From Leucobacter chromiireducens subsp. chromiireducens (GTDB lineage Bacteria > Actinomycetota > Actinomycetes > Actinomycetales > Microbacteriaceae): a stretch of 64,000 bases of DNA. Position 1 is the first letter of the stretch. Every line of letters begins with the position of its first letter. The notes below the pieces were generated by a model. That model saw only the letters and a program-made list of their open reading frames with translations. It was not told the origin of the DNA and searched no databases. The position numbers were made by a program, and so were the translations under genes. The stretch lies in NCBI RefSeq assembly GCF_016758255.1, contig NZ_QYAD01000001.1, positions 682,001 through 746,000 on the forward strand. Direction: 5' to 3'. Below, piece after piece: positions 2,148-17,564 of this stretch.

Positions 2148-2220
2148 GGCTCTGTAGCTCAGTTGGTAGAGCGTTCGACTGAAAATCGAAAGGTCACCGG
2201 ATCGATGCCGGTCGGAGCCA
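2148..2220 (+). tRNA. tRNA-Phe (GAA), integration site of the element
   Basis: Acceptor GGCTCTG pairs with CGGAGCC plus A; anticodon arm TTCGA-CT-GAA-AA-TCGAA gives anticodon GAA. The T-arm is atypical but complete (ATCGATGCC). Its 3' half, from nt 36, is repeated exactly at 17525-17561, so this is the attB/attL of the adjacent island, which restores a complete tRNA on integration. Confidence 0.95.
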
Positions 2221-2222
2221 CG
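2183..2222. repeat. attL core, 40-bp direct repeat
   Basis: Forty bases from the tRNA-Phe anticodon loop to 2 bp past its 3' end are identical to 17525-17564. The bases just outside both ends differ (A against T on the left, T against A on the right), which fixes the core. This is the usual crossover site for tyrosine recombinases that use tRNA genes. Confidence 0.93.
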
Positions 2223-2398: not shown

Positions 2399-3544
2399 TC
2401 AAAACAAGCCGTTGAGGCCTCTCTGCATGGTCTCGGCGGCTTTCTTGCTTCCTGTCTGCTTTGCCATGTAGATGTCCTGCGTGATTGAGGGGTTCGCCTG
2501 GCCTAGATACTCGGCAATGTCGCGAGCAGAGAGTCCGGCGGCGTCGAGCATCGTTGCGACCGTCTTGCGGAAGCTGTGGGTTGATAGCTCTGGGTAACCG
2601 AGATCCTCTCGGCGATCGCGAATCTCACGCTGTGTATTGGATGGGTCTCGCAGCTTCATGAGCGGCGTTGGGAAGAGCAGGTTGGTCTGACCCTCAAGTC
2701 GGTCACGTCGACGCCCCAGAAGCTCCACCGTGGACTTTGGTAGGGGAGTGGTGCGTGCTGAAGCTGCCGTCTTTGGGAACAGCTGCCGCTGCATTCCAAT
2801 CTTCGGCAGTCGCTTCGCGATAGCTTCGACTGTCGCGGTGCCGGCTTTGAAATCGACGGACGAGACCTCGAGCGCGCACGCCTCGGCGACGCGCCACCCC
2901 GTGGACAGCATGAACTCGATCAGCTCGACCGTGTCCCACTCTTTCAGAAGGGCGTCTTCTTGCACCTTGGCGATGAAATTAGGCAGCTCTGCGAGAGGGA
3001 TTGCCTCGCTCCCCTTCTTCTTTCGATGCGAGATTCGCTCCAGCTCGCGCACCGGATTGCGCGAAATCGCGCCATTACGCACCGCGAGACCCATCATGCC
3101 GCTCAGGGAGGAGCGGCAGTTCTTCGCAGCGCCCGGACCGTTCTCTTTCTCGATGCGAGTCAGGAACTTCTGCAGCCGCTCAGGAGTGGCCTCGGCGACT
3201 GACATGTCACCGATTTCTTTGCCGATGTGCGCGTTCACTGCGTAGCCGTAGGTCTCGAGCGTCCCTTCCGAGCGGCCGGCATCACGCTTTGCCGCCAAGA
3301 ACATTTGTCCCAGTGTCTTGAGTGTCGTGGTGGGCTTAAGTTCGCCGCCGCGATCCGCTTCAATGGTTGTCAGAGCTGTCTTGAGAGCGTGCTCCGCCTT
3401 GCTCTTGGTGCTACCGAACCGCTCGACCTGACGTAACTTGCCGTCGCTGAATCGGTAGCGGGTTCGAGCTCGGACCTTTCCTGGCGCTATCTCGTCGATC
3501 TTGATGACGCCATGGGTGCCAATCGGATTACGCGGGCGGGACAT
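2399..3544 (-). CDS. int: Tyrosine-family site-specific integrase
   Basis: 381 aa. The N-terminal part (about 1-65) resembles an AP2-like arm-binding domain, residues 75-165 the SAM-like core-binding domain, and 180-375 the catalytic domain. Catalytic residues visible: Arg218 (STGWRVAEA), His323 and Arg326 (THSFRKT), and Tyr359 (DIYM). The usual second His is Gln349 (LGQ), a known variation in the family. It recombines the tRNA-Phe attB with attP. The gene ends about 180 bp inside attL and reads towards it, as normal for tRNA-integrating islands. The ATG at 3544 is 17 bp from the repressor stop, so the two are probably co-transcribed. Confidence 0.95.
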   Translation of the reverse strand: MSRPRNPIGTHGVIKIDEIAPGKVRARTRYRFSDGKLRQVERFGSTKSKAEHALKTALTTIEADRGGELKPTTTLKTLGQMFLAAKRDAGRSEGTLETYGYAVNAHIGKEIGDMSVAEATPERLQKFLTRIEKENGPGAAKNCRSSLSGMMGLAVRNGAISRNPVRELERISHRKKKGSEAIPLAELPNFIAKVQEDALLKEWDTVELIEFMLSTGWRVAEACALEVSSVDFKAGTATVEAIAKRLPKIGMQRQLFPKTAASARTTPLPKSTVELLGRRRDRLEGQTNLLFPTPLMKLRDPSNTQREIRDRREDLGYPELSTHSFRKTVATMLDAAGLSARDIAEYLGQANPSITQDIYMAKQTGSKKAAETMQRGLNGLF

Positions 3545-3561: not shown

Positions 3562-4284
3562 TTAGAGCCAGCGGAAGGAGCTGGGATCAGGGAACTCCTG
3601 GGCGTCGGTTTCAAAATTGAAAGGGATCTTGGCCTTGTCCATAAGCGTGGCTACCTGCTGTTCAATGTCGGTGGTCTTGACACCCTTCGCTGTTAGTTCC
3701 TTTGACCATCTGACCACATTCACCGCACCTTCGATGGCATCCATCATTCGTGAGCTCTGTACCCTCTGGATCTCTTCGTCGTCGTCGCTGGTGACGAGCC
3801 CAAGTTGCGTGTACTTCAGAACAGCGTTCGTGAGCATGGACCAGGCCCGGCTGTATCCACGCAGTGCGTTTGTTGTTTCCATAACAGCCTTCGGGGCGCC
3901 ATCGAGCGGCTCGTCTGCAATTATGCGTTCCCCCGTGAACCAAGACCAGAAATCTGCGTTTCTTCGCATGCTTTCGAGCTCTTCGATCTTGAGCGTTTCG
4001 CGGTTGAAACCTTTGCCTCTCGCAAGTGGCATGTAGTACGGGGCGTCTGCCCCGGGGTTGAAGATATCCACAACGAGCGCAGCCGGTGGGATCCGGAGAG
4101 CGTTCCCAAGTGCAACCAGTTGCTTGACTGTTACATCATCTTTGCGGCCGTTCTCCAGGTTGGCAATGACTGAACGGCTGAGGCCTTCGCCCGCCAGTTC
4201 TGATAGCTCAGCGGCACTCAAGCCCTCAGCTCGTCTGTAGCGCGAGATATTGAGCCCGAGTTGCGACACGCCGTCTTTCTCCAT
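3562..4284 (-). CDS. XRE-family repressor-like regulator
   Basis: About 240 aa from the ATG at 4284; an in-frame ATG at 4332 would add 16 residues but lies upstream of the likely promoter, so the shorter start is preferred. Residues about 8-65 form a Cro/CI-type HTH (LGLNISRYRRAEGLSAAELS ... SRSVIANLENGRK). The C-terminal 160 residues are helical and not recognised; no LexA-type Ser-Lys peptidase motif is seen. Divergent from the AlpA-like gene with operator-like repeats between them. Probably the master repressor of the island, analogous to Stl or CI, and upstream of int in the same transcript. Confidence 0.85.
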   Translation of the reverse strand: MEKDGVSQLGLNISRYRRAEGLSAAELSELAGEGLSRSVIANLENGRKDDVTVKQLVALGNALRIPPAALVVDIFNPGADAPYYMPLARGKGFNRETLKIEELESMRRNADFWSWFTGERIIADEPLDGAPKAVMETTNALRGYSRAWSMLTNAVLKYTQLGLVTSDDDEEIQRVQSSRMMDAIEGAVNVVRWSKELTAKGVKTTDIEQQVATLMDKAKIPFNFETDAQEFPDPSSFRWL

Positions 4285-4285
4285 G

Positions 4286-4349
4286 TTGATACACACTATC
4301 GGAAGATCTGTGTATATTGAAGCTGAACACATAAACGGTATTTTTGTGT
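4286..4349. promoter_or_regulatory. Divergent control region with operator-like repeats
   Basis: Between the repressor and AlpA-like genes: TACACA (4290-4295) and TGTGTA (4309-4314) form one inverted repeat, ACACA (4327-4331) and TGTGT (4345-4349) a second. TTGATA (4286-4291) and TGTATA (4311-4316) could be -35/-10 boxes for rightward transcription, although the spacer (19 bp) is long. Repeated TGTGT half-sites suggest repressor binding. Inference from sequence only. Confidence 0.5.
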
Positions 4350-4366: not shown

Positions 4367-4579
4367 GTGGCGAAGACATTCAGTTCCCCGTCCGGCCCTC
4401 AGAGCCTTGTGAATGCTGCTGGCCTTGCAGAGCAGTTTGGGACCAGCGCAAGTTCGATTTACAGAAAGCGATCTCTGGGGGAGCCCTTGCCTCCCGCGAT
4501 CAAAATCGGCAGGGGCACAGTGCGCTGGCGTCAGGCGGACATTGATGCCTGGCTCGAGCAGCAAAGGGAGGACTCGTAA
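4367..4579 (+). CDS. AlpA/excisionase-like HTH protein
   Basis: 70 aa, MerR-like 'HTH_17' fold: SLVNAAGLAEQFGTSASSIY for the helix-turn-helix, then RGTVRWRQADIDAWL for the wing. Preceded by GAAAGGAAGAA as ribosome binding site. First gene rightward from the repressor, the position of xis/alpA in satellites and temperate phages, so it may direct excision or activate the early operon. Its stop shares one base with the next start (TAATG). Confidence 0.85.
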   Translation: MAKTFSSPSGPQSLVNAAGLAEQFGTSASSIYRKRSLGEPLPPAIKIGRGTVRWRQADIDAWLEQQREDS

Positions 4580-4992: not shown

Positions 4993-5219
4993 TGACCGTT
5001 GTCCCTATTCTCACGCATGTTCGCGAGAACACCAACACCGCCTTCAATACGGAGATCCAAGTCGGCAGTCTCACTGTCATGGTCGAAAGTCAGAGCGTGA
5101 GGACCATCACGCCAATCGGGACGCTCACCTTCACTCCCGAACAAGCTTGCACGTATGCTGCGGCGCTCCAGGCCGTCGCTGTGCACGTCATGGAGCAGAA
5201 CGAGGAGGTAGCAGCATGA
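4992..5219 (+). CDS. Small hypothetical protein
   Basis: 75 aa, unrecognised. Beta-rich N-terminal half (EIQVGSLTVMVESQSVRTIT) and a helical C-terminal half (EQACTYAAALQAVAVHVMEQ). Overlaps both neighbours by four bases (ATGA), typical of a tightly packed phage early operon. Confidence 0.65.
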   Translation: MTVVPILTHVRENTNTAFNTEIQVGSLTVMVESQSVRTITPIGTLTFTPEQACTYAAALQAVAVHVMEQNEEVAA

Positions 5220-5758
5220 GCATCTCGTCGCTGACTGTTGAGAAGCTGAACTACCTCATCGCGAAGAGCGGTCACCTGCACCAGACGCTCTCGATCGTCG
5301 CAGAAATCCCGCTCCCTACCCTTGTGCGAAAGCTCGCCGGTGAGGGTGACTTCACGGTGGGGGAGCTTGCCGGCATCACTCGCGCACTCGGGACAACAAT
5401 GTCCGCTCTCTTCGCTCCGGGAACGATCAAAGAGGACAAGCCCTGCACCGTGCCCGCGTGCGTTCGTAGCACGCACCAGTATGAGAACGGGTACCGCGTT
5501 GACTACTGCCGCCTCGCCCGCATCGAGGACGAAGGTTTCAACGTGAACGGCCACCTCGACGAAAAAGACGAGTGGGCGGCATGGGTAGATCCCGACGACA
5601 TTGCCGACGGGTGGGCAGGGATCGCCCAGGTGCGGAAGCTTCTGACGGCGTTCGAACAAATGCAGAGGGCCTGCGACGCGCTGAACGGCCATGCCATCGA
5701 ACGCCGCACCGCGCCTGGCCAACCAGCGGCTGAGGAACTGCAAGGGGTGGGGCTGTGA
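5216..5758 (+). CDS. Hypothetical protein with Cro/CI-type HTH
   Basis: 180 aa from the ATG at 5216, which overlaps the previous stop (ATGAG). Residues about 5-60 look like an HTH of the XRE type (LNYLIAKSGHLHQTLSIVAE ... TVGELAGITRALGTTMSALF). The rest is acidic with two Cys (VPACVRS, YRVDYCR) and a helical tail. An upstream extension of the frame exists but would overlap two coupled genes. Possible second regulator of the early operon; no closer assignment. Confidence 0.7.
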   Translation: MSISSLTVEKLNYLIAKSGHLHQTLSIVAEIPLPTLVRKLAGEGDFTVGELAGITRALGTTMSALFAPGTIKEDKPCTVPACVRSTHQYENGYRVDYCRLARIEDEGFNVNGHLDEKDEWAAWVDPDDIADGWAGIAQVRKLLTAFEQMQRACDALNGHAIERRTAPGQPAAEELQGVGL

Positions 5759-6294
5759 CTGAAATGTCGACAGACGGGATCGTCAACAAAGACCTCAGCC
5801 ACTCAGCCTCTTTCACGCCACCTGGAGACAGCAGCATGACCATCAACCAGACCACCCCCGCGTCCTCCCCGCTCGACACTTTGAAAGCGCTCGCGCTCCG
5901 GAGCATCAGCCAACTCGAGTTCGTCATCGACGAGCTCGGAGGCGGCTCACCAGACGTGCCGGAATGGCTGATCGAGTTCGTCGACGGCATCCGGAAAGCG
6001 CAGTACAAGGCACTCAGCGAGCATATGGACGTAGGGGTAGACGAGTGGCTTGGTGAGCTTCGGATCTTGCCGGAAGAAGCGTTCAGATATGACGACGGCA
6101 GCCCTGTCTCGATGGCGTTCAAAAGTGAGCACGTAACCAGCGTGTTCTACCCCCGCTACGACTCTGAAGAGCGAGTCCGGAAGTCGCACCTAGAGTGCGT
6201 GGCTGAGCACGAGCGACGCTACGGGCTCCACGAACAGTTCGACAACGTGGTGCGTGGTACGAACTGGGGCCATGATGGCCCGCAGGCAAGTTAG
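5755..6294 (+). CDS. Hypothetical early-operon protein
   Basis: 179 aa from GTG at 5755, overlapping the previous TGA (GTGA). A better-spaced ATG at 5836, after GGAGACAGCAGC, gives 152 aa and begins MTINQTTPAS; the start is not settled. Helical protein with SISQLEFVIDELGGGSPDVP and an acidic/aromatic middle part. No known family recognised. Confidence 0.6.
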   Translation: MTEMSTDGIVNKDLSHSASFTPPGDSSMTINQTTPASSPLDTLKALALRSISQLEFVIDELGGGSPDVPEWLIEFVDGIRKAQYKALSEHMDVGVDEWLGELRILPEEAFRYDDGSPVSMAFKSEHVTSVFYPRYDSEERVRKSHLECVAEHERRYGLHEQFDNVVRGTNWGHDGPQAS

Positions 6295-6706
6295 CGCCGC
6301 CGCCGAACACACCCTCACACACTGGCTCGACCAGGTCTCACAGGGGCAGCTCCCACTCCAGGAGCTGCCCCTGTGTGTCTCCGCATGGTTCCATGCGGGC
6401 GAAGCAGCAGGGCGTGTATCTCGGCAACCTGAAATCGACCAGCTCAACCATCTCCTCGATGTGTACTGGGCGCGCGCGTTCCTCACCAATGACGAACGCC
6501 GCGAACGCATCCTGCAACGCCTCGACACAGGCCTCCAGGAAGCCGACGAGAAGGTCTGGGACCGCATCGAACAAGAGCTTGCCCAGGCAGCTGGGCAACG
6601 ACAACTGAACACTCAGAACTCATTACGGGGCGGGGAACACCCGCCAGAACAAGGAGTCAACCATGACAGCAGCTCAGCACCTGAGCGCCGTCGAAGAGCA
6701 GCGTAA
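6272..6706 (+). CDS. Hypothetical helical protein
   Basis: About 144 aa from the ATG pair at 6272/6275, overlapping the end of the previous gene. Entirely helical, charged, with LDVYWARAFLTNDERRERIL and EKVWDRIEQELAQAAGQRQL. The last residues (SSAPERRRRAA) overlap the start of the RepA-like gene by about 44 bp in another frame. Function unknown; the position suggests a replication accessory protein, which is only a guess. Confidence 0.6.
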   Translation: MMARRQVSAAAEHTLTHWLDQVSQGQLPLQELPLCVSAWFHAGEAAGRVSRQPEIDQLNHLLDVYWARAFLTNDERRERILQRLDTGLQEADEKVWDRIEQELAQAAGQRQLNTQNSLRGGEHPPEQGVNHDSSSAPERRRRAA

Positions 6707-7685
6707 GCCTCATGGATACACGCCAGGCCTGTACTGCGATGTGAAGGAGCTGCTCGAACGAGGGCCACTCCAACCACCGGCCCCCGAGTATGGGCAGCGC
6801 AGCGACGGCATCGGGATCTTCTATAAGAGCGCAACGAACAGCCTCATCGGAGATCCGGAGTCCGGGAAGACCTTCATTGCGCTTACCGCGGGCGCTGACG
6901 TGCTCTTCACGGGCGGGAGCGTCCTCATCGTGGACTTGGACCACAACGGGGCGCAGGCCATCGTCTCGAGGCTTCGCGCGTTCGGAGTGCCGATCGATGT
7001 ACTCATCGACCCGCTGAGATTCAGATACACCGAGGCAGACGATCCTCCCTCGATGGCGGGAGTTGTGACCGACGCGATGTCATGGCGACCTGACTTTGTG
7101 GTGATCGATTCCATCGGTGAGCTGATGCCCATGTACGGGGCAAGCAGCAACAGTGCCGATGACTTCACCCGGGTTCACTCCACCGCGATTAAGCCCTTCG
7201 TTATGGCTGGCGCGTGCGTGGTCCTCATCGATCACCAGGCCAAAGGCAACGAGTCACGTCAGTACGGGGCCACTGGGACTGCAGCGAAAAAGCGGGCGAT
7301 CTCTGGTGCGCTGCTTCGCGTCACGATCGATGAACCCTTCGCGCCGGGATCGGGTGGCGCGGCCGAGATCACGCTCGTGAAAGACCGTCACGGCGGACTC
7401 CGAGCCCACTGCTCAAAGGACCGTGAACCTTTGGTGGGCCGCTTCAAAATGACCGATACCGAAGGCGCTTTGAACTGGTCTATCCGGCCACCGCTGGAGG
7501 GTGAGAAGCCGAAGCAGAGCATCAAGGTGGATGGTGCCACAGGAGAGCAGCTCCTCGAAGAACTCGACAAGCTCACCCCACCGCCAACGTCTGTGCGAGA
7601 CATCAAAACACGTTGTACGTGGGGCACGGGGAAAGCGTCAGAGGCGTGGCGACTGTGGCAAGAACGAGAAGGGGTAGTGGCGTGA
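6663..7685 (+). CDS. RepA-like/AAA_25 replicative ATPase
   Basis: 340 aa. RecA-fold ATPase: Walker A GDPESGKT at residues 63-70, Walker B-like DFVVIDSIGE, and a later VVLIDHQAKG strand followed by ATGTAAKKRA, as in hexameric RepA-type helicases and phage DnaB-like ATPases. C-terminal 60 residues look like a winged helix. AAGGAG sits 8 bp before the ATG at 6663. It probably unwinds the island origin; the gene directly downstream contains an iteron-like array, the usual place for a satellite or plasmid origin. No primase motif is visible, so priming would come from elsewhere. Confidence 0.85.
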   Translation: MTAAQHLSAVEEQRKPHGYTPGLYCDVKELLERGPLQPPAPEYGQRSDGIGIFYKSATNSLIGDPESGKTFIALTAGADVLFTGGSVLIVDLDHNGAQAIVSRLRAFGVPIDVLIDPLRFRYTEADDPPSMAGVVTDAMSWRPDFVVIDSIGELMPMYGASSNSADDFTRVHSTAIKPFVMAGACVVLIDHQAKGNESRQYGATGTAAKKRAISGALLRVTIDEPFAPGSGGAAEITLVKDRHGGLRAHCSKDREPLVGRFKMTDTEGALNWSIRPPLEGEKPKQSIKVDGATGEQLLEELDKLTPPPTSVRDIKTRCTWGTGKASEAWRLWQEREGVVA

Positions 7686-8089
7686 CCGACGATCAGAACC
7701 AGGGCGTGTTCCCCGTTCCCGGATATAGGGGTGGGGAACACGGGAACAGAGGAACGAGGAACGGGGCCGGGAACAACCAAGATCGGCTCTACGAGAGTTC
7801 CGGGAACGTTCCGGGAACATCGGGGAACACCTCTGTTCCCCGTTCCCCGACCCTATATCCGGGAACAGAGGAACGAGGAACGAAAAGCGCCCCCCGAAAG
7901 CCCTACCGGGTTCAAGCAAGACCCGCTGAGTGGGGCAATGCGGACGGCACGACCAGCCCGCTCGTGAAGCTCTATGGCGGTACCCGGGCACCCGTCGCCG
8001 TTGACTACAGCGAGATCCCGCGTCTCATTGCAGAGCTCGCCGAGCTCCTCCACGAGCACCAACGAACCTCCCGGAAGGAGGAAGCATGA
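7682..8089 (+). CDS. Iteron-containing small protein gene
   Basis: 135 aa from GTG at 7682, overlapping the RepA-like stop (GTGA). The N-terminal 65 residues are low complexity (repeated GN, RGT and PG), because the DNA is an array of GGAAC/GTTCC motifs. The C-terminal 70 residues look like normal protein (RVQARPAEWGNADG ... DYSEIPRLIAELAELLHEHQ). The gene may be real only in part: the DNA may primarily be a replication origin. Ends ATGA-coupled to the next gene. Confidence 0.6.
   Translation: MTDDQNQGVFPVPGYRGGEHGNRGTRNGAGNNQDRLYESSGNVPGTSGNTSVPRSPTLYPGTEERGTKSAPRKPYRVQARPAEWGNADGTTSPLVKLYGGTRAPVAVDYSEIPRLIAELAELLHEHQRTSRKEEA
7708..7882. repeat. GGAAC/GTTCC iteron-like array (candidate origin)
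   Basis: Eleven GGAAC and six GTTCC motifs in 175 bp. They include a perfect 22-bp direct repeat (7742-7763 and 7861-7882, beginning GGGAACAGAGG) and a perfect 16-bp inverted repeat (GTTCCCGGATATAGGG at 7715-7730, reverse complement at 7851-7866). Directly after the RepA-like gene, as expected for iterons bound by a cognate replication protein. Confidence 0.75.
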
Positions 8090-8370
8090 AGACCTACAAG
8101 AACCACCGCTGTAGCCGGCAACACCAAAAACCAGAAACCTTCATCCGCTGCGCACTCCCCACCCACACCTGGGTGAAAGGCACCGGCAGTTTCGCTCTCA
8201 TCAGCTGGTGCGGACGACCAACCATCAGCCTCTGGGAGACCAACGCCGTAGCAACTGTGATCCTCGAAGATCTCAACGCGACCGGTTGCAGGAGCGGATG
8301 CCGAGGACGGCACGAGATCGTGCAAGTCGCCATTAGGCCGGAGACACGAGCGGGCGCAGCACGGGGATGA
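8086..8370 (+). CDS. Small Cys/His-containing protein
   Basis: 94 aa, ATGA-coupled to the previous gene. Contains scattered Cys and His (NHRCSRQHQ, IRCALPTH, TGCRSGCRGRH), which could bind zinc, and a basic C terminus. Not recognised. Last gene of the coupled early operon. Confidence 0.6.
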   Translation: MKTYKNHRCSRQHQKPETFIRCALPTHTWVKGTGSFALISWCGRPTISLWETNAVATVILEDLNATGCRSGCRGRHEIVQVAIRPETRAGAARG

Positions 8371-8485
8371 GCCACAGGCAGTACCCGGTCACAACTGACC
8401 ACGCAACAACCTCAGCGCCATAAACAACCAAGGCGCGAGGCAACACGAAGCCGGCCCCAAAAGGCCGAACGAAAGGAACAAGATA
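8371..8485. other. Short intergenic spacer
   Basis: A/C-rich spacer with a small GGCC-CCAAAA-GGCC hairpin near 8452. No gene or clear promoter seen. Confidence 0.4.
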
Positions 8486-9082
8486 GTGAGTTTCAGCACA
8501 GGAATGAGCATCACCTTCCGAAGCGAAGGCGTCACCATCCACGACAACGAAAGCCCCGACCTTGTGGAGGTCGCAGGACAGATTAAGCAGCTTCGGGACA
8601 CCGCCCGCCAAGCCAGCAAGACACACAGCGCTGAACTCGCGGACATCCGACACGACCCACAGCTCAGCGACCAAGGACGAGCCGAACGCATCGCGGACGC
8701 AGAAACCGCATACGCAGCCGCACGCCGCAGCCGCATCAACGCCGAGAACCAGGTCATCGACACCAAGATCACGGAACTCGAGCGGCGCCTCGACGGGTTC
8801 GTCGGGTGCAGCGAAAACAACATCATCGCCTACCGAGACGCACAAGACCGAGCCGAAGCCGTCAGAGACAACGACCGTGCCGCAAAGGTCATGGACCGCG
8901 CACTACGCAGCAACGACCGAACACTCGCACACGCACTCTTCCGAGAAGCAGTCGAGAACCACTGGGAAGACGCACAGCGCGCCTTCACGAAAGCAAACCC
9001 CACAGTCGCAGCACTCGTCAACGACGTACAAAAGCTGCGCACACTCCGCAGCGAGTTCGGACGAGGCCTCAACTACATGTGA
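8486..9082 (+). CDS. Coiled-coil hypothetical protein
   Basis: 198 aa from GTG at 8486 with GAAAGGA upstream. After a short beta-rich start (MSITFRSEGVTIHD) almost the whole chain is charged helix (VAGQIKQLRDTARQASK ... RSRINAENQVIDTKITELER), probably a coiled coil. No recognised domain. The coding strand is strikingly A/C-rich compared with the G/T-rich genes that follow. A strong terminator lies 15 bp downstream. Confidence 0.7.
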   Translation: MSFSTGMSITFRSEGVTIHDNESPDLVEVAGQIKQLRDTARQASKTHSAELADIRHDPQLSDQGRAERIADAETAYAAARRSRINAENQVIDTKITELERRLDGFVGCSENNIIAYRDAQDRAEAVRDNDRAAKVMDRALRSNDRTLAHALFREAVENHWEDAQRAFTKANPTVAALVNDVQKLRTLRSEFGRGLNYM

Positions 9083-9096
9083 ACACGCAACACAAA

Positions 9097-9132
9097 GCCA
9101 CTCCTCCTGGGCAAACACCCAGGGGGAGTGGC
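9097..9132 (+). terminator. Terminator between early and late modules
   Basis: Stem GCCACTCCTCCTGGG / CCCAGGGGGAGTGGC with loop CAAACA, ending 50 bp after the coiled-coil gene. Separates the early half of the island from the scaffold/tape-measure half. Confidence 0.75.
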
Positions 9133-9323
9133 CCCCAAGCCGTCATCTACAAGACCTCCGGTGCTTGCCGTTCTCTCTCTCCGGCATTTTTTCTTTTTTC
9201 GTGGGGGAGGTGTTGGGCTCCGTTGGGAACGTAGTTTTGGCATCGTTGTGCGGCGATTTGGGGTGTGGTGGCTTCTCTGGGGAAGACTCTCCGCTCAGCT
9301 GATGGCAACACTTAGGAGGTTTG

Positions 9324-9557
9324 GTGTCTCGGGGTTTGGGTTCGTGTCAACGGTTCCTGTTGGAGTCGTTCTTGTCGCATCCTGATGGTTTCGGGCTGGT
9401 GGTTACATCGGCTGCGACCACGCGTTCGGATGCGGTTTCGTTGCGTCGAGCGGCGCACACGTTGGCCTCACGTGGGCTAGTGCGAGTGGTGAGCGTGTTT
9501 GATCATGGCTCGCATCGCATGGTGATCTATTTAGTGAAGGAGTCAATCAATGGCTGA
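9324..9557 (+). CDS. Small winged-helix-like protein
   Basis: 77 aa from GTG at 9324, chosen because AGGAGG (9314-9319) precedes it by 4 bp. The sequence DGFGLVVTSAATTRSDAVSL, then RRAAHTLASRGLVRVVSV and SHRMVIYLV, looks like a helix-turn-helix followed by a beta wing. Its stop overlaps the start of the scaffold-like gene by eight bases, so they are coupled. It may regulate the late genes; unproven. Confidence 0.6.
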   Translation: MSRGLGSCQRFLLESFLSHPDGFGLVVTSAATTRSDAVSLRRAAHTLASRGLVRVVSVFDHGSHRMVIYLVKESING

Positions 9558-10017
9558 AGGTGTTTCGGCGGTACCGTCGCCGGCAGACGTGGCCGTCCGG
9601 GTCGCTGAGCGGACGTTCACACAAACTGAGGTGGACGAGATTGTTCAGAGCCGTTTGAAGAATATGAAGGCTGAGTACGAGCAGGTGCAGGCGCGTGCGG
9701 CTTCTGCGCAGGATCTAGAGTCACGCAACCAGCAGCTGGTGTCTGAGCTGTCCTCGTTGCAGTTGGAGAATTTGCGAGTGCGTATTGCTGCGGAGTTTGG
9801 CATCGGGTCGGTCGACCGCGACATTCTTCTCACTGCGACCGATGAGGGCATGTTGCGGATGCAGGCGGAGCGGTTCGCCGGTCTCGTGTCTCAACGACTC
9901 GTTGGGGGCAACCTGGCGCCCCGTGAAGGTGGCGTGGTTCAGCGGCCGGAGCCCAGCGGCGAGAGTATGCGCGAGAGCTTGAGGGAATTGTTCGATAGCG
10001 AACCGATGTGGGATTAG
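9550..10017 (+). CDS. Phage capsid scaffolding-like protein
   Basis: 155 aa. The pattern is that of phage head scaffolding proteins: TFTQTEVDEIVQSRLKNMKA, a central coiled coil (residues about 40-75, ESRNQQLVSELSSLQLENL), then RIAAEFGIGSVDRDILLTAT and TDEGMLRMQAERFAGL, and an unstructured acidic C terminus (SLRELFDSEP). In siphophages this gene lies just before the major capsid gene; here no capsid gene follows. It could redirect assembly of another phage's capsid, as size-redirecting proteins of satellites do; that is inference. Confidence 0.7.
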   Translation: MAEGVSAVPSPADVAVRVAERTFTQTEVDEIVQSRLKNMKAEYEQVQARAASAQDLESRNQQLVSELSSLQLENLRVRIAAEFGIGSVDRDILLTATDEGMLRMQAERFAGLVSQRLVGGNLAPREGGVVQRPEPSGESMRESLRELFDSEPMWD

Positions 10018-10066
10018 AGACGCAATAGACGGTTGTCTCGTTGTTCCAAACCGCTTATTGCGGGCA

Positions 10067-10093
10067 GGGGAGTCTCGTTTGGGGCTCCCTTTT
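10067..10093 (+). terminator. Possible terminator after scaffold-like gene
   Basis: GGGAG ... CTCCC with TTTT following, 50 bp after the stop. The stem is short, so attenuation rather than full termination is plausible. Confidence 0.45.
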
Positions 10094-10121
10094 GTGTTTC
10101 GTGGGTATGAGAGGGGCAGTG

Positions 10122-10331
10122 ATGCTCGAGAAGGAAGATCTTGAAAGGTTGATGGCTGAGTGCCGAGAGTTCGGGTTGGCTGATGTGAAGGCGCTCGAAG
10201 CTGGGTGGAGTGATCTGGCGCAGAGGTTCCCTGGTGATGGTGCTGAGCTCATGGAGAAGCTGATGGCGTTTCTGCGGGTCGCGGCTGAGAGCACTCGTGA
10301 GATGGACCGGTTGAACGGGGAGGTGCTCTGA
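10122..10331 (+). CDS. Small helical protein upstream of tape measure
   Basis: 69 aa from the ATG at 10122, with GAGGGG 4 bp upstream. Acidic helical protein (EKEDLERLMAECREFGLADV ... ELMEKLMAFLRVAAESTREM). In siphophages the tail assembly chaperones occupy this position directly before the tape measure gene; this protein is smaller and no slippery frameshift site was seen, so that role is only suggested. Stop overlaps the tape measure ATG by one base. Confidence 0.7.
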   Translation: MLEKEDLERLMAECREFGLADVKALEAGWSDLAQRFPGDGAELMEKLMAFLRVAAESTREMDRLNGEVL

Positions 10332-13300
10332 TGGCGGATCGGTCAGTCAAGGTAACTCTCACCGCGCAGGCTCAGGGCTATATCGCAGCTATGGAGAAGG
10401 CGGCACAGGCCACCCGTGAGGCTGGCAGTGAGACGGAGAAGTTAGCCCAGAAGCAGCAGGCGTTCGAAGAGATGGGCCGTGTTGGGATGGCTTCGGGCGC
10501 GTTGCTTGCGGTCGGGCTTGGGCTCGCGTCTAAGGCGGCGATTGATTGGGACTCCGCGTGGGCTGGGGTTACGAAGACGGTTGATGGGTCGCCGGAGCAG
10601 CTGGCGCAGGTTGAGGCTGGCCTTCGCGGCTTGACGAACGTGCTGCCAGCGTCTCACACAGAGATTGCTGCTGTTGCTGAGGCTGCTGGCCAGCTTGGCA
10701 TCGCGACACCGAATGTTGTGGCGTTCACCAAGACGATGATCGATCTTGGGGAGACGACGAACCTCACCGCAGAGGAAGCCGCAACGCAGCTTGCTCGGTT
10801 TGTGAACGTGATGGGTACTTCGCAGTCTCAGGTGTCGAACCTCGGCGCTGCACTGGTGGAGTTGGGAAACAACTACGCGACCACAGAGGCAGAGATCTTG
10901 TCGATGGCGCAGCGCCTTTCCGGTGCTGGTACTCAGATCGGGATGTCTGAGGGGCAGGTTCTTGGCCTGTCCACCGCCCTGTCTTCAGTCGGCATTGAGG
11001 CTGAGGCCGGCGGCTCTGCGATGTCGAAAGTCATGATCGATATTGCTTCGTCGGTTGATAAGGGTGGTGACCGGCTCGAGAAGTTCGCGTCGGTTGCTGG
11101 TATTTCGGCTGACCAGTTCGCGGCGAAGTGGCGTTCTGATCCTGGTGAGGCGCTCGCTGCGTTCGTGAGTGGTTTGGCGAATGCTGAGGCTCAGGGGAAG
11201 TCCACCTTTGGGGTGCTCGAGGAGCTCGGCATCACTGAGGTGCGAATGCGTGATGCACTCCTGCGCTCCGCGTCAGCTGCTGACCAGTTCTCGTCGGCCA
11301 TGCAGATGGGCAACAGCGCCTTCGAAGAGAACACCGCGCTCGTTGACGAGGCGAACAAGCGCTATGAGACCACAGCTTCCAAGCTGGGGGTTGCGAGGAA
11401 CCAGGCCGTGGATCTGGCGATCTCGTTCGGTGAGCATTTGCTGCCGGCTATCGAGTTCGCAGCTGACGGTGTTGGCCTCTTCACGAACCTTTTGTCTGGG
11501 CTCGATGGGCCTATGGGGGCCGTGGCCGCTTGGGGTGCTGTGGCGTCTGCGAGTGTGCTGCTTGGGGGTGGCGTGATGATGGCCGCGGTCCCCAAGATCG
11601 CCGCGTTCAAGGTCGCCCTGGAAACTCTGGAAGTCACATCAACCCGGGTGCTTGATGGGGTGGGTCGGGTTACTGGCATGCTCGGGAATCCGTGGGTGCT
11701 TGGCGTGACTGCTGCAGCTTCCGTTGTTGGTGTTCTTGTGGCGGAGCAGAACCGCCTCAGTAACCAGGCGAAGGCCCTTGCTGACACCCTGGACGGTGCG
11801 ACGGGTGCGATCACGGAGAACTCTGAAGCGTGGGCTGCGAACGAGCTGCAGCAGCAGGGTGTGCTGTCCGCGGCGAAGCGGTTGGGGATCTCCGCGAGTG
11901 ACATGACACAGGCATGGCTTGGCAACGCGGACGCACTCGAGACCGTGAATGGTCGGTTGGACAAGTTTAAGCACGATGCAGATTTCAGGCTTGAGAACGC
12001 GGACTGGAAGGGCTGGTCTGACGACCTTGCCGATGTGGGGTACGCCCTCGACGGGAGCAACAAGGTCCTTTCCGAGGCGAAGACCAGACAGCAGGAGCTC
12101 ACGGAAGCAACCGGGCAGGGGAGCGCTGCTGCTGGTGACGCGGCCGACTCCGCGCAGGAACAGACTGCTTCACTTGAGGAGCTCGCTGGTGTGGCGGCGA
12201 AGACTAGTGACGAGATCTTTGATCTTGCTGACCAAATCCGCAACTTCGGTGAGGGCGCTTTCGATATGGAGGGGGCCGCGATCAAGTTGCAGGCCGAGTA
12301 TCGGAAGCTCGCGGAGGCGTTTGCTGAGGGTGGGCAGTCGCTCGACATCACGACGGCTGCAGGCGCTGACACGGTGTCGATGCTGCTCGATATCGCTTCA
12401 GCAGCGAACGCTTCTGCCGGCGCAACATTCGAGATGACGGGTTCGCAGGAAGAAGCGAACAAGATTCTTGATGAGGCACGGCAGAAGATCATCGACGCCC
12501 GGGTGGCGTTGGATGAATCGCCTGAGGCTGCTGCAGCGTGGGCGGACCAGTTCCTGTCATCGTCGCAGGCGGTCTCTGAGGCTGCTGAAGCGTCGAAGGT
12601 CGCGATTGATGACATCCCTGATGAGAAGAAGATCTTCATGGATGCTGACACTGCTGCGGCGCTCGAGGGTATCGATGGGGTGCAGGTCATCCAGGTTGAT
12701 GAGAAGACCGCTGTGGTTGTTGGTGAGACTGACGATGCGATGGCGAAGATCGGTGAGGTTGTCGCGAACAATCCACCGGAGAAGGTTTTGCAGATCAGTG
12801 CGGATGCGGCTGATGCGTACCGCGGTATCGATGGTGTGAACGTTCGCAAGGTGAACGGGAAGACCGCGTATGTGTGGGGCAACAACGCTGAAGCGATCAA
12901 GCATATTGAAGAGGTCAACAAGACGCAGACGCCTCGCAAGATGGTGTGGATTGGGGCTGACGATTCCGGGTTCCGCAGTGTGTGGGACTCGATTGCGGCA
13001 CTGGGTCCGATCCAGAAGATCGTGAACTTCGTGAAGGGCACGAGCGCGAGCGATAACGCGAACGGCGGCATCTACGCCTACGCGAATGGGGGCATCGCGG
13101 CCTATGCCGGCGGCGGGTTCGCGACAGGGATCTACAAGGGTGGCGCCCCGATTCACAAGTTCGCTGAGCCTGAGACGGTGTGGGAGGCGTACATCTCGGG
13201 GAAGCCTGATCAGCGGGAACGCAACCGGCAGATCTGGGTTGAGACAGGCGAACGTCTCGGCATGGGAACCGGTAGCCAGGCAACGGTGTACGTGCCGACA

Positions 13301-13420
13301 TCGGTCACTGTGAGGGACGCGGACAACCGTTTGGTGGGGACGATGGCGGTTGTTGCTGACCAGCGAATCGACGGCTATACGGAAGAACGGGCCCAGGCAG
13401 AACGCAGGGCCCGTCACTAA
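10331..13420 (+). CDS. Phage tail tape measure protein
   Basis: 1029 aa. N-terminal 350 residues match the TP901-type tape measure family (DWDSAWAGVTKTVDGSPEQL, LGETTNLTAEEAATQLARF, SALSSVGIEAEAGGSAMSK). Two hydrophobic segments near residues 390-425 and 455-475, then a long helical region, two similar units of about 43 residues near 760-855 (each with GIDGVxVxxV and KTAxVxG), and the actinophage-type C terminus (HKFAEPETVWEAYISGK). The protein sets tail length by spanning the tail tube; by the common 1.5 angstrom per residue rule this would be about 150 nm. No tail tube, chaperone or baseplate gene accompanies it, so it would have to work with helper tail proteins. Confidence 0.92.
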   Translation: MADRSVKVTLTAQAQGYIAAMEKAAQATREAGSETEKLAQKQQAFEEMGRVGMASGALLAVGLGLASKAAIDWDSAWAGVTKTVDGSPEQLAQVEAGLRGLTNVLPASHTEIAAVAEAAGQLGIATPNVVAFTKTMIDLGETTNLTAEEAATQLARFVNVMGTSQSQVSNLGAALVELGNNYATTEAEILSMAQRLSGAGTQIGMSEGQVLGLSTALSSVGIEAEAGGSAMSKVMIDIASSVDKGGDRLEKFASVAGISADQFAAKWRSDPGEALAAFVSGLANAEAQGKSTFGVLEELGITEVRMRDALLRSASAADQFSSAMQMGNSAFEENTALVDEANKRYETTASKLGVARNQAVDLAISFGEHLLPAIEFAADGVGLFTNLLSGLDGPMGAVAAWGAVASASVLLGGGVMMAAVPKIAAFKVALETLEVTSTRVLDGVGRVTGMLGNPWVLGVTAAASVVGVLVAEQNRLSNQAKALADTLDGATGAITENSEAWAANELQQQGVLSAAKRLGISASDMTQAWLGNADALETVNGRLDKFKHDADFRLENADWKGWSDDLADVGYALDGSNKVLSEAKTRQQELTEATGQGSAAAGDAADSAQEQTASLEELAGVAAKTSDEIFDLADQIRNFGEGAFDMEGAAIKLQAEYRKLAEAFAEGGQSLDITTAAGADTVSMLLDIASAANASAGATFEMTGSQEEANKILDEARQKIIDARVALDESPEAAAAWADQFLSSSQAVSEAAEASKVAIDDIPDEKKIFMDADTAAALEGIDGVQVIQVDEKTAVVVGETDDAMAKIGEVVANNPPEKVLQISADAADAYRGIDGVNVRKVNGKTAYVWGNNAEAIKHIEEVNKTQTPRKMVWIGADDSGFRSVWDSIAALGPIQKIVNFVKGTSASDNANGGIYAYANGGIAAYAGGGFATGIYKGGAPIHKFAEPETVWEAYISGKPDQRERNRQIWVETGERLGMGTGSQATVYVPTSVTVRDADNRLVGTMAVVADQRIDGYTEERAQAERRARH

Positions 13421-13427
13421 CAAGTAG

Positions 13428-13461
13428 GTGCCCCTCTCCAGCTACGGCTGCGGAGGGGCAC
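13428..13461. terminator. Bidirectional terminator after tape measure
   Basis: Stem GTGCCCCTC / GAGGGGCAC between the convergent tape measure and DUF4145 genes. Serves both directions. Confidence 0.7.
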
Positions 13462-13481
13462 TACTCGTGTCTCTACCCTGA

Positions 13482-14204
13482 TTAGGGCCGCGACTGCGCA
13501 TCTCGCTTTCGTTGCGCTGCAGCTTGAACCCCGTCCGGAAGCAAGCTGAACAGGTCTGAGGCCCGCTGCGGCTTGGCCACTAACTCGTCAACAACCTGGT
13601 TGATGCTTCCCAGAAGCACGGGCGCCAACTCCGCATCCGCCTCATCAAGGAATAGAGCAACAGCCCCGTCATCAGATTTGCTGTGCAACACCCGATTCCC
13701 GGTATCTCGAAGTACCGTGAGGAGTTGCCACAACGGCTCACTCACCTGTGTCGATAGCAAGGCGATGCGGTCGTCAAGTCGAGAATCGGGAGGTCCGATC
13801 TCTAGAGCTTTGAGTTCAACTTCTAGAGCGGCTCTCGCCAGGGCCGCCGAAGCTCTCCGGGACACTGGCAGAACGCTCGCTGCTTCTTCGTAAAGTACCT
13901 TCGCGGCAGCATCCATCAGCTCGTGTGCGCGTTCAACGCCGGTGCGAAGGGGCGGATGGATAAGCGCTTCCTTGCGCCAGGTCGTGCGCTCGTTGCAGGA
14001 TTTGCACTCGCTAGTCTTCCAATTGCTGTAAACCGCGACAGTTTTCGCTGGATCGGCCTCGACGTACTCTACGTCATCGTAGTAACGGTGTTGTGAACCA
14101 TTTTCATCGTAAAAGTACAGTTCGAACCACTCGTGATGTGAGAAGGCTCCGCATCGTGCGCAGTTGAATCGATCTCGGTCCAAAGCGGGTGCGTTGTCAT
14201 TCAT
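13482..14204 (-). CDS. DUF4145 (HEPN-like) protein
   Basis: 240 aa. N-terminal zinc-ribbon-like part with FNCARCG and SECKSCN pairs; residues about 105-200 match DUF4145 (ASAALARAALEVELKALEIG, then LLTVLRDTGNRVLHSKSDD), which ends in the family's R-x7-H pattern. DUF4145 is a helical HEPN-related domain often found with restriction or other defence genes. Last gene of a minus-strand trio; 36 bp follow the Panacea stop. A nuclease or antiviral effector role is inference. Confidence 0.8.
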   Translation of the reverse strand: MNDNAPALDRDRFNCARCGAFSHHEWFELYFYDENGSQHRYYDDVEYVEADPAKTVAVYSNWKTSECKSCNERTTWRKEALIHPPLRTGVERAHELMDAAAKVLYEEAASVLPVSRRASAALARAALEVELKALEIGPPDSRLDDRIALLSTQVSEPLWQLLTVLRDTGNRVLHSKSDDGAVALFLDEADAELAPVLLGSINQVVDELVAKPQRASDLFSLLPDGVQAAAQRKRDAQSRP

Positions 14205-14240
14205 ATCTTGAGAGTACCGCGGGCGACTATTCCAGCGGAG

Positions 14241-14705
14241 TCAGTCCTTTAGCTCGCGCCTAAAGTACTCCAGCATCGAGTGCTTGGTAATGACACTGTT
14301 ATCGCGCTGACCGTCGGATACGCTAGCCTGCTGCCTGGCTTCTGCCCACGGGGTGCCGGGTCTATGCGTCAATTCACTGAGCTCAATGCCCGAAAGGGCT
14401 CCGTAGTTGTGGAGCATTGCCTGGACTATTAGTTCAGGAAAACCGACAATCCGGGTGGATTTTCCTTGGTTCCAGGAGGACACGCTGTATTTGCCGCGAT
14501 GCTGCATATACAGGTCCCAGTTAACGGGGCCGTTCTTCCAAGCATGAAAATCTTCCGCGAAGAGCGGCTCGCCGGAAATCCCTAGCGACCAACCCTGCCC
14601 GAAGAAACAAAGCTTCTGCAGCTTCATTGTGGATATAGGTCCATCGAACTTTGCGAGGATAAATGCGGCAACGTCATGGATGCTTGCGGTGCTAGCGGCC
14701 ATCAC
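14241..14705 (-). CDS. Panacea (DUF4065/SocA-like) protein
   Basis: 154 aa. Typical Panacea domain: VAAFILAKFDGPISTMKLQK, LCFFGQGWSLGISGEPLF, FHAWKNGPVNWDLYMQHRG, and YGALSGIELSELTHRPGTPW. Panacea proteins act as antitoxins or proteolytic adaptors in many toxin-antitoxin pairs with unrelated toxins. The GTG at 14705 (ATG at 14702 is also possible) overlaps the stop of the upstream 2TM-GAF gene, so those two are translationally coupled; the toxin partner could be that protein or the downstream DUF4145 protein. Confidence 0.88.
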   Translation of the reverse strand: MMAASTASIHDVAAFILAKFDGPISTMKLQKLCFFGQGWSLGISGEPLFAEDFHAWKNGPVNWDLYMQHRGKYSVSSWNQGKSTRIVGFPELIVQAMLHNYGALSGIELSELTHRPGTPWAEARQQASVSDGQRDNSVITKHSMLEYFRRELKD

Positions 14706-15628
14706 TTCACCTCCTCGCCAGTGATAGTCATTCCAACAATGCTACCCGGTGAAGGAGTGCCAAAGGATATACCACGCCGGGCTGCCTCACGCCGCAACTC
14801 GTCGAGCTCGGGCTTTGTGTCCTTTGCGGCTCCAACCGTCTTAGCTAGTCCAATCCCGATTAAGAAAGCTACGGTATGAGCTACCGCGATCTCGTCCTCG
14901 GTGAATCGGCGTCTCTTTTCTCTCGTGTCGATTGATAGGACACCTCGAGGCTTATTGTCCACAATAATTGGGACGGCAAAGAACGCATGCCAGGTTGTTC
15001 CATTGGGGCGATCAACTTGGTCCTTCTCTTTCCTGACTGGGTATGGGACGCAAAGATACTGCGTGCCGCTCGCGACATCAATCAGTCGTTTCCCGTGCGG
15101 TGAGTCGGAATTGAATTCAGCTCGAGGGGTGTCCCCTCGTCCGGAGAATGATCGCCTCGTAAGGTATTGGGTGTCTCCGTCCTTGCTCTCAGATCCCTCG
15201 AGTTCGTAAACGCAGACGCGTGAGCCGCGCATTAAAAAGAGAGGCACTGCAGTTCGAACGACATTGTCGAAAAAGTCCTGCTTTGCCCGTGTGTTTCTGG
15301 GTGACGCGATGTACTGGCTCACTACCTGTAGGACTGCGTTGAGGGAATCGTTGAACTCAGACTGGGTGCTTGAGCGTTCAGTATCTGCTCTCGAAGATCT
15401 GATTTGATTCCAGGAGAGCAGCCCGACTCCGACCAGGCAGAGAAAGGCCCCTAACCAGATCGCATCTCCGCCATCCTCAACTACTTCACCGTCGCTCTTA
15501 AGTGTCAACCCATAGCTGATCAGAATCGGACCGCCGGCTACTAGCAGCGTTCCGACCACGAAACGGATCCAGTCGAGCGTCTTGCCCCCTCGGGACGTCG
15601 CTGCGTGATGGCGTCGTGACATACTCAC
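14702..15628 (-). CDS. Membrane-anchored GAF-domain protein
   Basis: 308 aa from GTG at 15628 (ATG at 15622 also in frame). Two transmembrane helices near residues 20-42 (IRFVVGTLLVAGGPILISYG) and 55-75 (AIWLGAFLCLVGVGLLSW), then a helix and a GAF domain at about 115-270 (YLCVPYP, WHAFFAVPIIVDNKPRGVLS, EDEIAVAHTVAFLIGIGL). GAF domains bind small ligands or nucleotides. No output domain follows. First gene of the cargo operon. A sensor that reports a signal to the Panacea partner, or a membrane-acting toxin, are both possible. Confidence 0.75.
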   Translation of the reverse strand: MSMSRRHHAATSRGGKTLDWIRFVVGTLLVAGGPILISYGLTLKSDGEVVEDGGDAIWLGAFLCLVGVGLLSWNQIRSSRADTERSSTQSEFNDSLNAVLQVVSQYIASPRNTRAKQDFFDNVVRTAVPLFLMRGSRVCVYELEGSESKDGDTQYLTRRSFSGRGDTPRAEFNSDSPHGKRLIDVASGTQYLCVPYPVRKEKDQVDRPNGTTWHAFFAVPIIVDNKPRGVLSIDTREKRRRFTEDEIAVAHTVAFLIGIGLAKTVGAAKDTKPELDELRREAARRGISFGTPSPGSIVGMTITGEEVK

Positions 15629-16792: not shown

Positions 16793-17220
16793 TCATGCTT
16801 ATTCCTGTCAGGAATAAGCATGAGCCTGGAAGCGCTCGCGTGCGGAGCGGGTGAGCCCAGGTTGATGGGCTGGTTGGGAGGGGGGTGGGGCTTGGCGGGG
16901 CATGCTTACTCCTGTCAGGAGTAAGCATGCCCCGTTATTGCTGTCAGCAATAAGCGGGGTCTTGGAAGCGCTCGAGCGCAGGTCTATCGGCTGGCGCTGC
17001 TCGCAGGGAAGGTTTGTGGTCTGGTTGGGGCCGCTTACTCCTGACAGGAGTAAGCGGCCCCCGTTACTCCTGACAGGAGTAACGGGGCGTTGCCGCGCAC
17101 TGGGATAGCGGGTATGTGGCGTCCTCAGTGGAGCGCTGCGTGAGTCTCTTCGCTTATTCCTGTCAGGAATAAGCGGGTCGAGATGCGCATGCCCCGTTAT
17201 TCCTGTCAGGAATAGCGGGG
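16793..17220. repeat. Array of seven large CTG-W-CAG palindromes
   Basis: Seven palindromes in 430 bp: 16793-16823, 16897-16933, 16930-16959, 17027-17061, 17059-17087, 17151-17175, 17192-17220. Each has a one-base centre (T or A) in CTG-W-CAG, flanked by variants such as TTATTC or TTACTC with matched changes on the other arm, and often closed by CCCCG/CGGGG. Five are perfect, with arms of 12-18 bp. GGAAGCGCTCG also occurs twice between them (16828, 16965), and CTGGTTGGG follows each copy, so the block grew by duplication. No gene lies here. Confidence 0.9.
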
Positions 17221-17524: not shown

Positions 17525-17564
17525 AAATCGAAAGGTCACCGGATCGATGCCGGTCGGAGCCACG
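17525..17564. repeat. attR core, 40-bp direct repeat
   Basis: Exact copy of 2183-2222: the 3' half of tRNA-Phe plus CG. It lacks the 5' half of the tRNA, so it marks the right end of the island. Confidence 0.93.

What the first reader, a model, noticed from the sequence alone, without database searches (positions are those of the whole stretch)
9550..13420. Scaffold-like protein and tape measure carried without capsid or tail genes
The island keeps exactly the two assembly proteins that set head size (scaffold) and tail length (tape measure), with a small protein between. A satellite could use them to reprogramme a helper's virion: smaller heads and a chosen tail length. Known satellites redirect capsids, but a satellite-borne tape measure would be a new strategy.
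Basis: inference. Interest (0 to 1): 0.85.

Follow-up and report, generated by a model that had tools for sequence, protein, structure and literature searches.

The report
Phage satellite with own tape measure
A 15-kilobase parasite of bacterial viruses in a Leucobacter-type chromosome carries its own versions of the proteins that shape a virus head and template its tail; several relatives carry the tail template too, each beside a small partner gene not seen in the viruses examined, a strategy so far shown in cholera bacteria.

Summary
9550-10017 is a head-scaffold homologue and 10331-13420 an intact TP901-type tape measure protein (TMP), with a small gene between. They lie in a 15,342-bp element between exact 40-nt copies of the tRNA-Phe 3' end; no portal, capsid, tail-tube or tail-tip gene was found. 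It is unlikely to be a prophage wreck: in 54 genomes of the genus, seven related elements (this one included) carry a TMP on a satellite backbone, while head genes vary (scaffold 2, small terminase 3, none found 2). Their TMPs form three types, each grouping with prophage TMPs and of about the same length (ratios 1.03, 1.01, 0.94). So 'a chosen tail length' is not supported; replacing the helper's TMP in otherwise helper-built, chimeric tails fits best. That strategy was published in 2026 for Vibrio cholerae PLEs, so it is not new in principle. New here: a second satellite family, in Actinobacteria with siphophage-type helpers; and two small gene families found directly before all seven satellite TMPs and not detected in prophages, candidates for the unknown factor that makes tails take the satellite's TMP. 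Function is inferred; nothing was measured.

The parts
2183..2222 (+). attL: 3' end of tRNA-Phe (2148-2221)
   Evidence: ARAGORN; exact 40-nt repeat
2399..3544 (-). tyrosine integrase, 381 aa
   Evidence: PF00589, phrog_1; 96% to LYC-2, 72% to the element in L021
3562..4332 (-). HTH repressor-like protein
   Evidence: HTH_3, phrog_8
4367..4579 (+). AlpA/excisionase-like regulator, divergent from the repressor
   Evidence: HTH_17, Phage_AlpA; phrog_66
5219..5758 (+). repressor-like HTH protein of the satellite backbone
   Evidence: phrog_4583 8e-7; 97% to LYC-2
6254..6706 (+). backbone protein shared with other satellites
   Evidence: tblastn in LYC-2, L. salsicius, both G015 elements, G003, G036:C2 and G048
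6663..7685 (+). AAA/RecA-like ATPase, probable replication protein
   Evidence: AAA_25; matches in 7 of 54 genomes of the genus; phage matches, 27-32% identical, are mostly annotated primase/helicase
8486..9082 (+). backbone protein of unknown function
   Evidence: 72% to G015; no confident family
9550..10017 (+). head scaffolding protein homologue, 155 aa
   Evidence: phrog_233 and seven other scaffold PHROGs; 72% to G015; long helix 25-83 and C-terminal helix 137-149 in a low-confidence model
10122..10331 (+). small TMP-partner gene (family A2), 69 aa from the homology-supported start; stop overlaps the TMP start (TGATG)
   Evidence: four family members in 54 genomes, all directly before a satellite TMP; junction
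10331..13420 (+). tail tape measure protein, 1029 aa, TP901 type
   Evidence: PF10145, phrog_13339, TIGR01760; residues 1-464 77% to the G032 prophage TMP
13482..14204 (-). cargo: PD-T7-4-like anti-phage defence protein (DUF4145)
   Evidence: PADLOC 1e-29; Pfam DUF4145
14241..14705 (-). cargo: SocA/Panacea-like protein (Panacea recalled)
   Evidence: NF047745 partial, 2e-13, far below its cut-off; phrog_1281
14702..15628 (-). cargo: GAF-domain-like protein
   Evidence: weak partial hit to a NifA model, 3e-4; the domain name is recalled
16799..17215 (.). seven copies of a 19-bp palindrome TTAYTCCTGWCAGGARTAA (up to 2 mismatches) near the right end
   Evidence: 7 matches, mean 0 in 100 shuffles
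17525..17564 (+). attR, exact 40-nt copy of attL

Best explanation
This is an integrated phage satellite. When a suitable siphophage grows in the cell, the island excises and replicates, and its scaffold joins or competes with the helper's scaffold, giving heads that favour the 15-kb genome (inferred). Its TMP, translated together with the small partner, replaces the helper's TMP inside tails otherwise built from helper tube, tip and chaperone proteins, giving chimeric tails of about normal length dedicated to satellite particles. The small partner is proposed to load or protect the satellite TMP, or keep the helper's out. Shown here: gene identity, element borders, absence of other detected virion genes, conservation across related islands, helper-matched TMP types, a small partner gene before each satellite TMP. 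Inferred: excision, capsid and tail use, and the partner's role.
For: Borders and gene content. Seven TMP-bearing satellites in 54 genomes. Satellite TMPs fall among prophage TMPs in three groups of the N-terminal tree, at least three label changes forced by well-supported branches. The G032 prophage has a counterpart of each gene kind: a small terminase 68% identical over the matched part to LYC-2's, a scaffold whose best PHROG is the same as the window's (profile match 5e-4), a TMP 77% identical over residues 1-464 to the window's. Purifying selection. A2 or A3 gene before 7 of 7 satellite TMPs and no further member found in 54 genomes except two borderline hits. Precedents: PLE TMP is incorporated and needed for transduction (PMC12987554); CpmB competes with the helper's scaffold (PMC5644958 abstract).
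Against: No particle, excision or transfer was observed. No helper is resident as far as tested: the own genome has no PF04860 portal match and no second PF10145 TMP; other portal or TMP families were not searched. The partner families show no profile similarity to prophage tail chaperones. Among 100 relatives only G015 has a close scaffold; G036 (26%) and G096 (28%) are distant. Two related islands have only TMP remnants, and two relatives in the genus have no TMP match. The purifying selection could partly date from time spent in phages, as TMPs are exchanged. A2 and A3 were collected by looking in front of satellite TMPs, so the linkage is partly by choice; the searches only show that no more were found elsewhere, with profiles of 3-4 sequences.
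Confidence: 0.62

Rival explanations
1. Interference decoy: the satellite TMP mainly poisons helper tail assembly (dominant negative), protecting the host, and is not part of infectious satellite particles.
For: A PD-T7-4-like defence gene sits next door; PLE11 blocks the helper's TMP by other means, with Rta (PMC12987554, passages).
Against: Full-length TMPs in seven elements (LYC-2's pieced from two contigs), low dN/dS in the pair tested, lengths like those of working TMPs; a poison could be a fragment.
Confidence: 0.17
2. Tail-length reprogramming: the TMP is kept because it gives satellites a different tail length.
For: TMP length sets tail length (stated in PMC12987554); PLE tails are 10 nm shorter. 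Individual satellite TMPs do differ from the nearest prophage TMP (window 1029 against 947).
Against: Within each TMP type the satellite mean is 1.03, 1.01 and 0.94 of the prophage or phage mean: longer in two types, shorter in one. Types A and B have a single prophage each in this table.
Confidence: 0.08
3. A prophage that decayed by deletion, leaving scaffold and TMP by accident.
For: Genes are phage-derived; two other islands hold TMP remnants; no resident helper found.
Against: Exact att repeats round a 15.3-kb element; the same backbone in elements with different TMP types, head genes and tRNA sites; of 200 ORFs of 10 prophage-type loci only TMP, small terminase and one 68-residue match in G048 hit 10 satellite stretches; low dN/dS.
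Confidence: 0.06
4. Scaffold and TMP act only as spare parts that compensate for defective helpers, with no selective incorporation.
For: Mosaic exchange between satellite and prophage TMPs.
Against: Does not explain the partner gene before each satellite TMP that was not found in prophages.
Confidence: 0.07

Closest known systems
PLE satellites of Vibrio cholerae (PLE1, PLE4, PLE11; Mathur et al. 2026, PMC12987554; abstract, section 8 and passages read)
   Same: Integrated satellite that relies on a helper's virion encodes its own TMP, with a further small tail gene in the same cluster; TMPs fall into distinct types between variants; capsids are modified too.
   Different: PLEs use ICP1, with contractile tails, and encode a tail chaperone and, in some, a baseplate hub; the PLE11 TMP is 20% identical to the helper's. 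Here: Actinobacteria, siphophage-type TMPs 77-78% identical to prophage TMPs in the N-terminal part at best, no chaperone homologue detected, unrelated small partners. No sequence comparison with PLE proteins was made.
SaPI1 CpmB (Dearborn et al. 2017, PMC5644958; abstract read)
   Same: Satellite-encoded protein that competes with the helper's scaffold to make small capsids.
   Different: CpmB works with CpmA; a TMP in SaPI1 is not known to me (recalled). The protein here is full scaffold length (155 aa against 153 in the G032 prophage) and is not shown to make small heads.
PICIs with terS
   Same: Integrase next to a tRNA site, divergent regulators, replication gene, small size, small terminase in four of nine related elements of the genus, cargo defence gene (layout recalled; PICI map convention and the 10-15 kb size seen in passages of PMC11364771).
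   Different: The window element has no detected terminase gene; a TMP is the commonest virion gene of this family (seven of nine).
cf-PICIs with putative tmp genes (Extended Data Fig. 10 legend of PMC12987554, passages seen)
   Same: Satellites said to hold putative TMP genes.
   Different: cf-PICIs form their own capsids; no portal, capsid or large terminase gene was detected in the window element.
Pseudomonas AH14b satellite (PMC4936722, passages seen)
   Same: Satellite with one tail-assembly gene homologous to its helper's.
   Different: That gene is a lambda-type tail assembly protein I, not a TMP, and VIRFAM found no head-neck-tail protein.

Membership tests
PICI-like phage satellite | Integrase beside an attachment site flanked by direct repeats | tested here: met
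   40-nt exact repeats, tRNA-Phe, integrase
PICI-like phage satellite | Divergent repressor and AlpA-type regulator, then a replication gene | tested here: met
   3562-4332 (-), 4367-4579 (+), 6663-7685; the replication role of the last is inferred
PICI-like phage satellite | Small size without a full virion module | tested here: met
   15,342 bp
PICI-like phage satellite | Own small terminase or other packaging redirection gene | tested here: inconclusive
   None found in the window element; present in LYC-2, L. salsicius, G036:C2, G044; G015's second element has a large terminase
PICI-like phage satellite | Induced and transferred by a helper phage | not testable with these tools
   Needs experiment
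cf-PICI | Own capsid, portal and large terminase genes | tested here: not met
   No such gene detected in the window element
PLE | TMP gene in a satellite | tested here: met
PLE | Own tail assembly chaperone beside the TMP | tested here: inconclusive
   A small gene sits there but its family shows no profile match to prophage chaperones
PLE | Sequence relationship to PLE genes | not tested
   PLE sequences were not fetched
SaPI CpmB-type capsid redirector | Scaffold-type protein encoded by a satellite | tested here: met
SaPI CpmB-type capsid redirector | Makes small capsids | not testable with these tools
   Needs electron microscopy
Tailed prophage | Terminase, portal, capsid, tail tube and tail tip genes | tested here: not met
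   contrast the G032 prophage in L055

The most novel reading that the evidence does not exclude
The A2 and A3 proteins are satellite-made sorting factors: bound to their own TMP, they make helper tail tubes form only on satellite TMP and mark those tails for satellite heads. A pirate would then need only a TMP and one small protein to take over the whole tail pathway, and could change helper by swapping the TMP's N-terminal part.
Probability: 0.25. Interest if true: 0.82.

Novelty: new variant of a known kind. Interest (0 to 1): 0.63.

Why it matters
Satellite control of tail assembly was reported in 2026 as first known in one satellite family, and how the satellite TMP is chosen over the helper's is called unknown there (PMC12987554). 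This second family, on siphophage-type tails and with no chaperone homologue detected, suggests TMP replacement arose more than once and names small genes (A2, A3) that can be tested as the choosing factor. It also argues that tail length is not the purpose.

Tried and rejected
Structure models were little help: small partner mean pLDDT 69 from two sequences (three helices), scaffold 66 from one sequence; searches against viral models gave nothing with E at or below 0.001, and PDB sequence searches gave nothing meaningful. The partner families were compared with prophage chaperone profiles and with each other: no relation beyond a 16-column, low-probability match between the two. Viral contigs with the scaffold found no relative. 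tblastn against phages with the window's small partner gave only chance-level matches (best E 2), with the L. salsicius A3 protein none. A DNA comparison of the window element with the G032 prophage stretch and 6 kb upstream of it showed only TMP similarity, so no shared packaging site was found; this was not a dedicated search. Attachment repeats were not found for the G015 element at tRNA-Leu nor between the two LYC-2 contigs. The satellite label on the TMP tree is not clearly clustered (52 of 500 shuffles as low), as expected if TMPs are exchanged with prophages.

Idea dropped: that satellite TMPs are shorter. Idea put low: deletion-derived prophage.

Rows left out or doubtful: of the 10 loci used as prophage queries, two (L061, L068) showed only the TMP among the matches, so their prophage nature is assumed. 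The 200 query ORFs came from my own simple gene caller (60 aa or more, coding score of at least 8), so they are not every gene. The tree leaves out L063 (its TMP N-terminus lies in another frame), L061 and the G038 contig-edge TMP, and has only residues 1-121 of LYC-2. TMP hits of G028, G050 and G038 were not classified; the distant AAA matches in G049:C5 and G053:C6 (L024, L025) were not characterised. LYC-2's TMP is split over two contigs; 911 aa is the sum of both parts by homology, and its end differs from the window's. One search's dN/dS of 0.26 for its second part ran past LYC-2's stop; one search repeats it up to the stop (0.24 in all, 0.15 and 0.38 by part). That G001 is LYC-2 and G031 is L. 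salsicius M1-8 is inferred from equal contig lengths or positions. In one search the satellite rows were not printed; that comparison was repeated and printed.
Full report
WHAT IS THERE. The window lies in a genome of the Leucobacter group: the named relatives found by sequence are L. chromiireducens LYC-2 and L. salsicius M1-8. The first matches phage head scaffold families (best phrog_233, 4e-8; the Pfam scaffold model DUF4355 only weakly) and the scaffold of Arthrobacter phage Pitbull (38%, E 1e-14). The third is a TP901-type tape measure protein. The small ORF has no confident family match; homology points to a start at 10122, and its stop overlaps the TMP start as TGATG.

THE ELEMENT. An exact 40-nt copy of the tRNA-Phe 3' end at 2183-2222 recurs at 17525-17564, so the element is 15,342 bp. 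It reads integrase, repressor, AlpA-like regulator, several backbone genes, AAA ATPase, a protein of unknown function, scaffold, small gene, TMP, then a cargo block with a PD-T7-4-like defence gene. No portal, capsid, tail tube, tail chaperone or tail tip gene was found by PHROG scans of 20 of its ORFs, 200 called ORFs from 10 prophage-type loci of the genus or 63 labelled proteins from four phages.

RELATED ISLANDS. In 54 genomes of the genus (own included) the AAA protein finds matches in 7 genomes, 8 places, and the TMP finds matches in 18 genomes. Reading neighbourhoods gives seven TMP-bearing satellites: the window, LYC-2, L. salsicius, G015 (C2:280k), G003, G036:C2 and G048; and two relatives without a TMP match: G015 (C2:95k) and G044. 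Head or packaging genes by PHROG or BLAST: scaffold in the window and G015; small terminase in LYC-2, L. salsicius, G036:C2 and G044; large terminase in G015's second element. None was found in G003 or G048, by BLAST only. In these ten stretches the prophage ORFs matched, besides TMPs, only the small terminases and one 68-residue piece in G048. Two further islands have TMP remnants only: G049 (193 aa, near a tRNA-Arg and a partial integrase match) and G210 in another genus (169 aa). Element sizes where both ends were found: 15,342 bp here, 9,484 bp (L021, same tRNA-Phe) and 9,232 bp (L023, tRNA-Lys). In a sample of 299 family genomes, which includes some of this genus, AAA matches occur in 10, three of them of this genus; G250 and G322 carry a small terminase match and no TMP match.

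THE TMPs RESEMBLE THOSE OF HELPER-TYPE PHAGES, IN THREE TYPES. In a tree of the N-terminal 300 residues, satellite TMPs fall into three groups, each with prophage TMPs of the same genus; well-supported branches force at least three changes of the label. Type A: window, LYC-2, G003 with the G032 prophage (window residues 1-464 77% identical). Type B: L. salsicius and G048 with the G021 prophage and others. Type C: G015 and G036:C2 with prophages G036:C4, G053, G017 and phage Pitbull. The G032 prophage holds small and large terminase, portal, scaffold, capsid, tail tube, TMP and minor tail proteins (some labels by BLAST or position), and its small terminase is 68% identical over the matched part to LYC-2's. 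It shows the kind of helper these islands would exploit; it was found in another genome, and no helper was found in the own genome with the two families searched.

LENGTH. With homologous starts, satellite against prophage/phage means are 976 vs 947 (type A, one prophage), 852 vs 845 (B, one prophage) and 932 vs 992 (C, four) residues. There is no systematic shortening, though single pairs differ (window 1029 against 947).

THE SMALL PARTNER. The gene directly before the TMP belongs to family A2 in the window, LYC-2, G003 and G036:C2, and to family A3 in L. salsicius, G015 and G048. In six of the seven it overlaps the TMP start by 1-8 bases; in G036:C2 there is a gap of 100 bases. Profiles of both found only these seven, from which they were built, among 6,654 ORFs of 42 loci, which include the prophages and four phages. 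In 54 whole genomes A2 has four places, all these; A3 has three strong places, all these, plus two borderline hits inside large frames. In 398 family genomes A2 has the own copy plus three borderline hits. The families were collected by looking before satellite TMPs, so what the searches add is the absence of further members elsewhere, within the reach of profiles of 3-4 sequences. A2 occurs with TMP types A and C, A3 with B and C, so the partner is not tied to one TMP N-terminus. Neither family aligns with prophage tail chaperone profiles, and the two do not align with each other beyond a short, low-probability stretch.

SELECTION. dN/dS (Nei-Gojobori, own script): TMP window against LYC-2 0.04 (codons 1-121), 0.15 (120-722) and 0.38 (after 722, to LYC-2's stop); scaffold window against G015 0.17; partner window against LYC-2 0.11; integrase 0.08. 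Genes of a decaying prophage would drift towards 1. Part of this selection could have acted in phages before capture.

MECHANISM. Best reading: the island is a satellite whose scaffold acts on the helper's head and whose TMP, with its partner, replaces the helper's TMP in chimeric tails. Shown by sequence: gene identity, borders, missing virion genes, retention in seven islands, helper-matched types, a partner gene before each. Inferred: excision, small heads, incorporation, the partner's job. The analogy rests on published work: PLE TMP is incorporated into PLE11 virions with the helper's excluded, and tmp deletion cuts transduction by 96-99.9% in three PLEs (PMC12987554, section 8); CpmB competes with the helper scaffold (PMC5644958, abstract).

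NOVELTY. Mathur et al. [quoted passage not shown] An older paper has a Pseudomonas satellite with a different tail-assembly gene (PMC4936722, passages). Searches for satellites with tape measures listed no actinobacterial case by title; a survey of actinobacterial prophages found through one search suggests that its smaller elements may be satellites and does not use the term tape measure (PMC10023795, passages). The library holds open-licence papers only, and most listed papers were not opened. So the principle is known and the family appears new: a new variant of a known kind. What a specialist would find most surprising is that the TMP is the commonest virion gene of these islands (seven of nine), each time behind a partner gene not found in phages.

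Noticed in passing
16799-17215: Seven copies of a 19-bp palindrome (TTAYTCCTGWCAGGARTAA, up to 2 mismatches), none expected by chance; no exact match in 88 other loci, but LYC-2's right end holds a similar stretch. Could be an origin, operator or terminator array.
   Followed up: partly
13482-15628: Cargo block: PD-T7-4-like defence gene, SocA-like gene and GAF-like gene, next to the TMP.
   Followed up: partly
L021 (G015:C2:85001-105000), about 6069-15552: A 9,484-bp relative at the same tRNA-Phe carries a large terminase gene (13406-14899); no scaffold or TMP match.
   Followed up: partly
L082:5224-8376 (G210): An element of another genus holds a TMP remnant beside a 628-aa protein with a partial tail-spike match (phrog_7458, 7e-6): perhaps a satellite with its own receptor-binding part.
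   Followed up: no
L009:16660-16995 and L022:4638-4868: Small genes just after the TMP in two satellites, similar in appearance and without PHROG match.
   Followed up: no
L063:9568-12274 (G033): Prophage TMP whose first about 130 residues lie in another frame than the rest: a frameshift or a sequencing error.
   Followed up: no
L058:12951-14462 (G036:C2): A transposase-like ORF lies after a satellite TMP (name recalled from its sequence, not searched).
   Followed up: no
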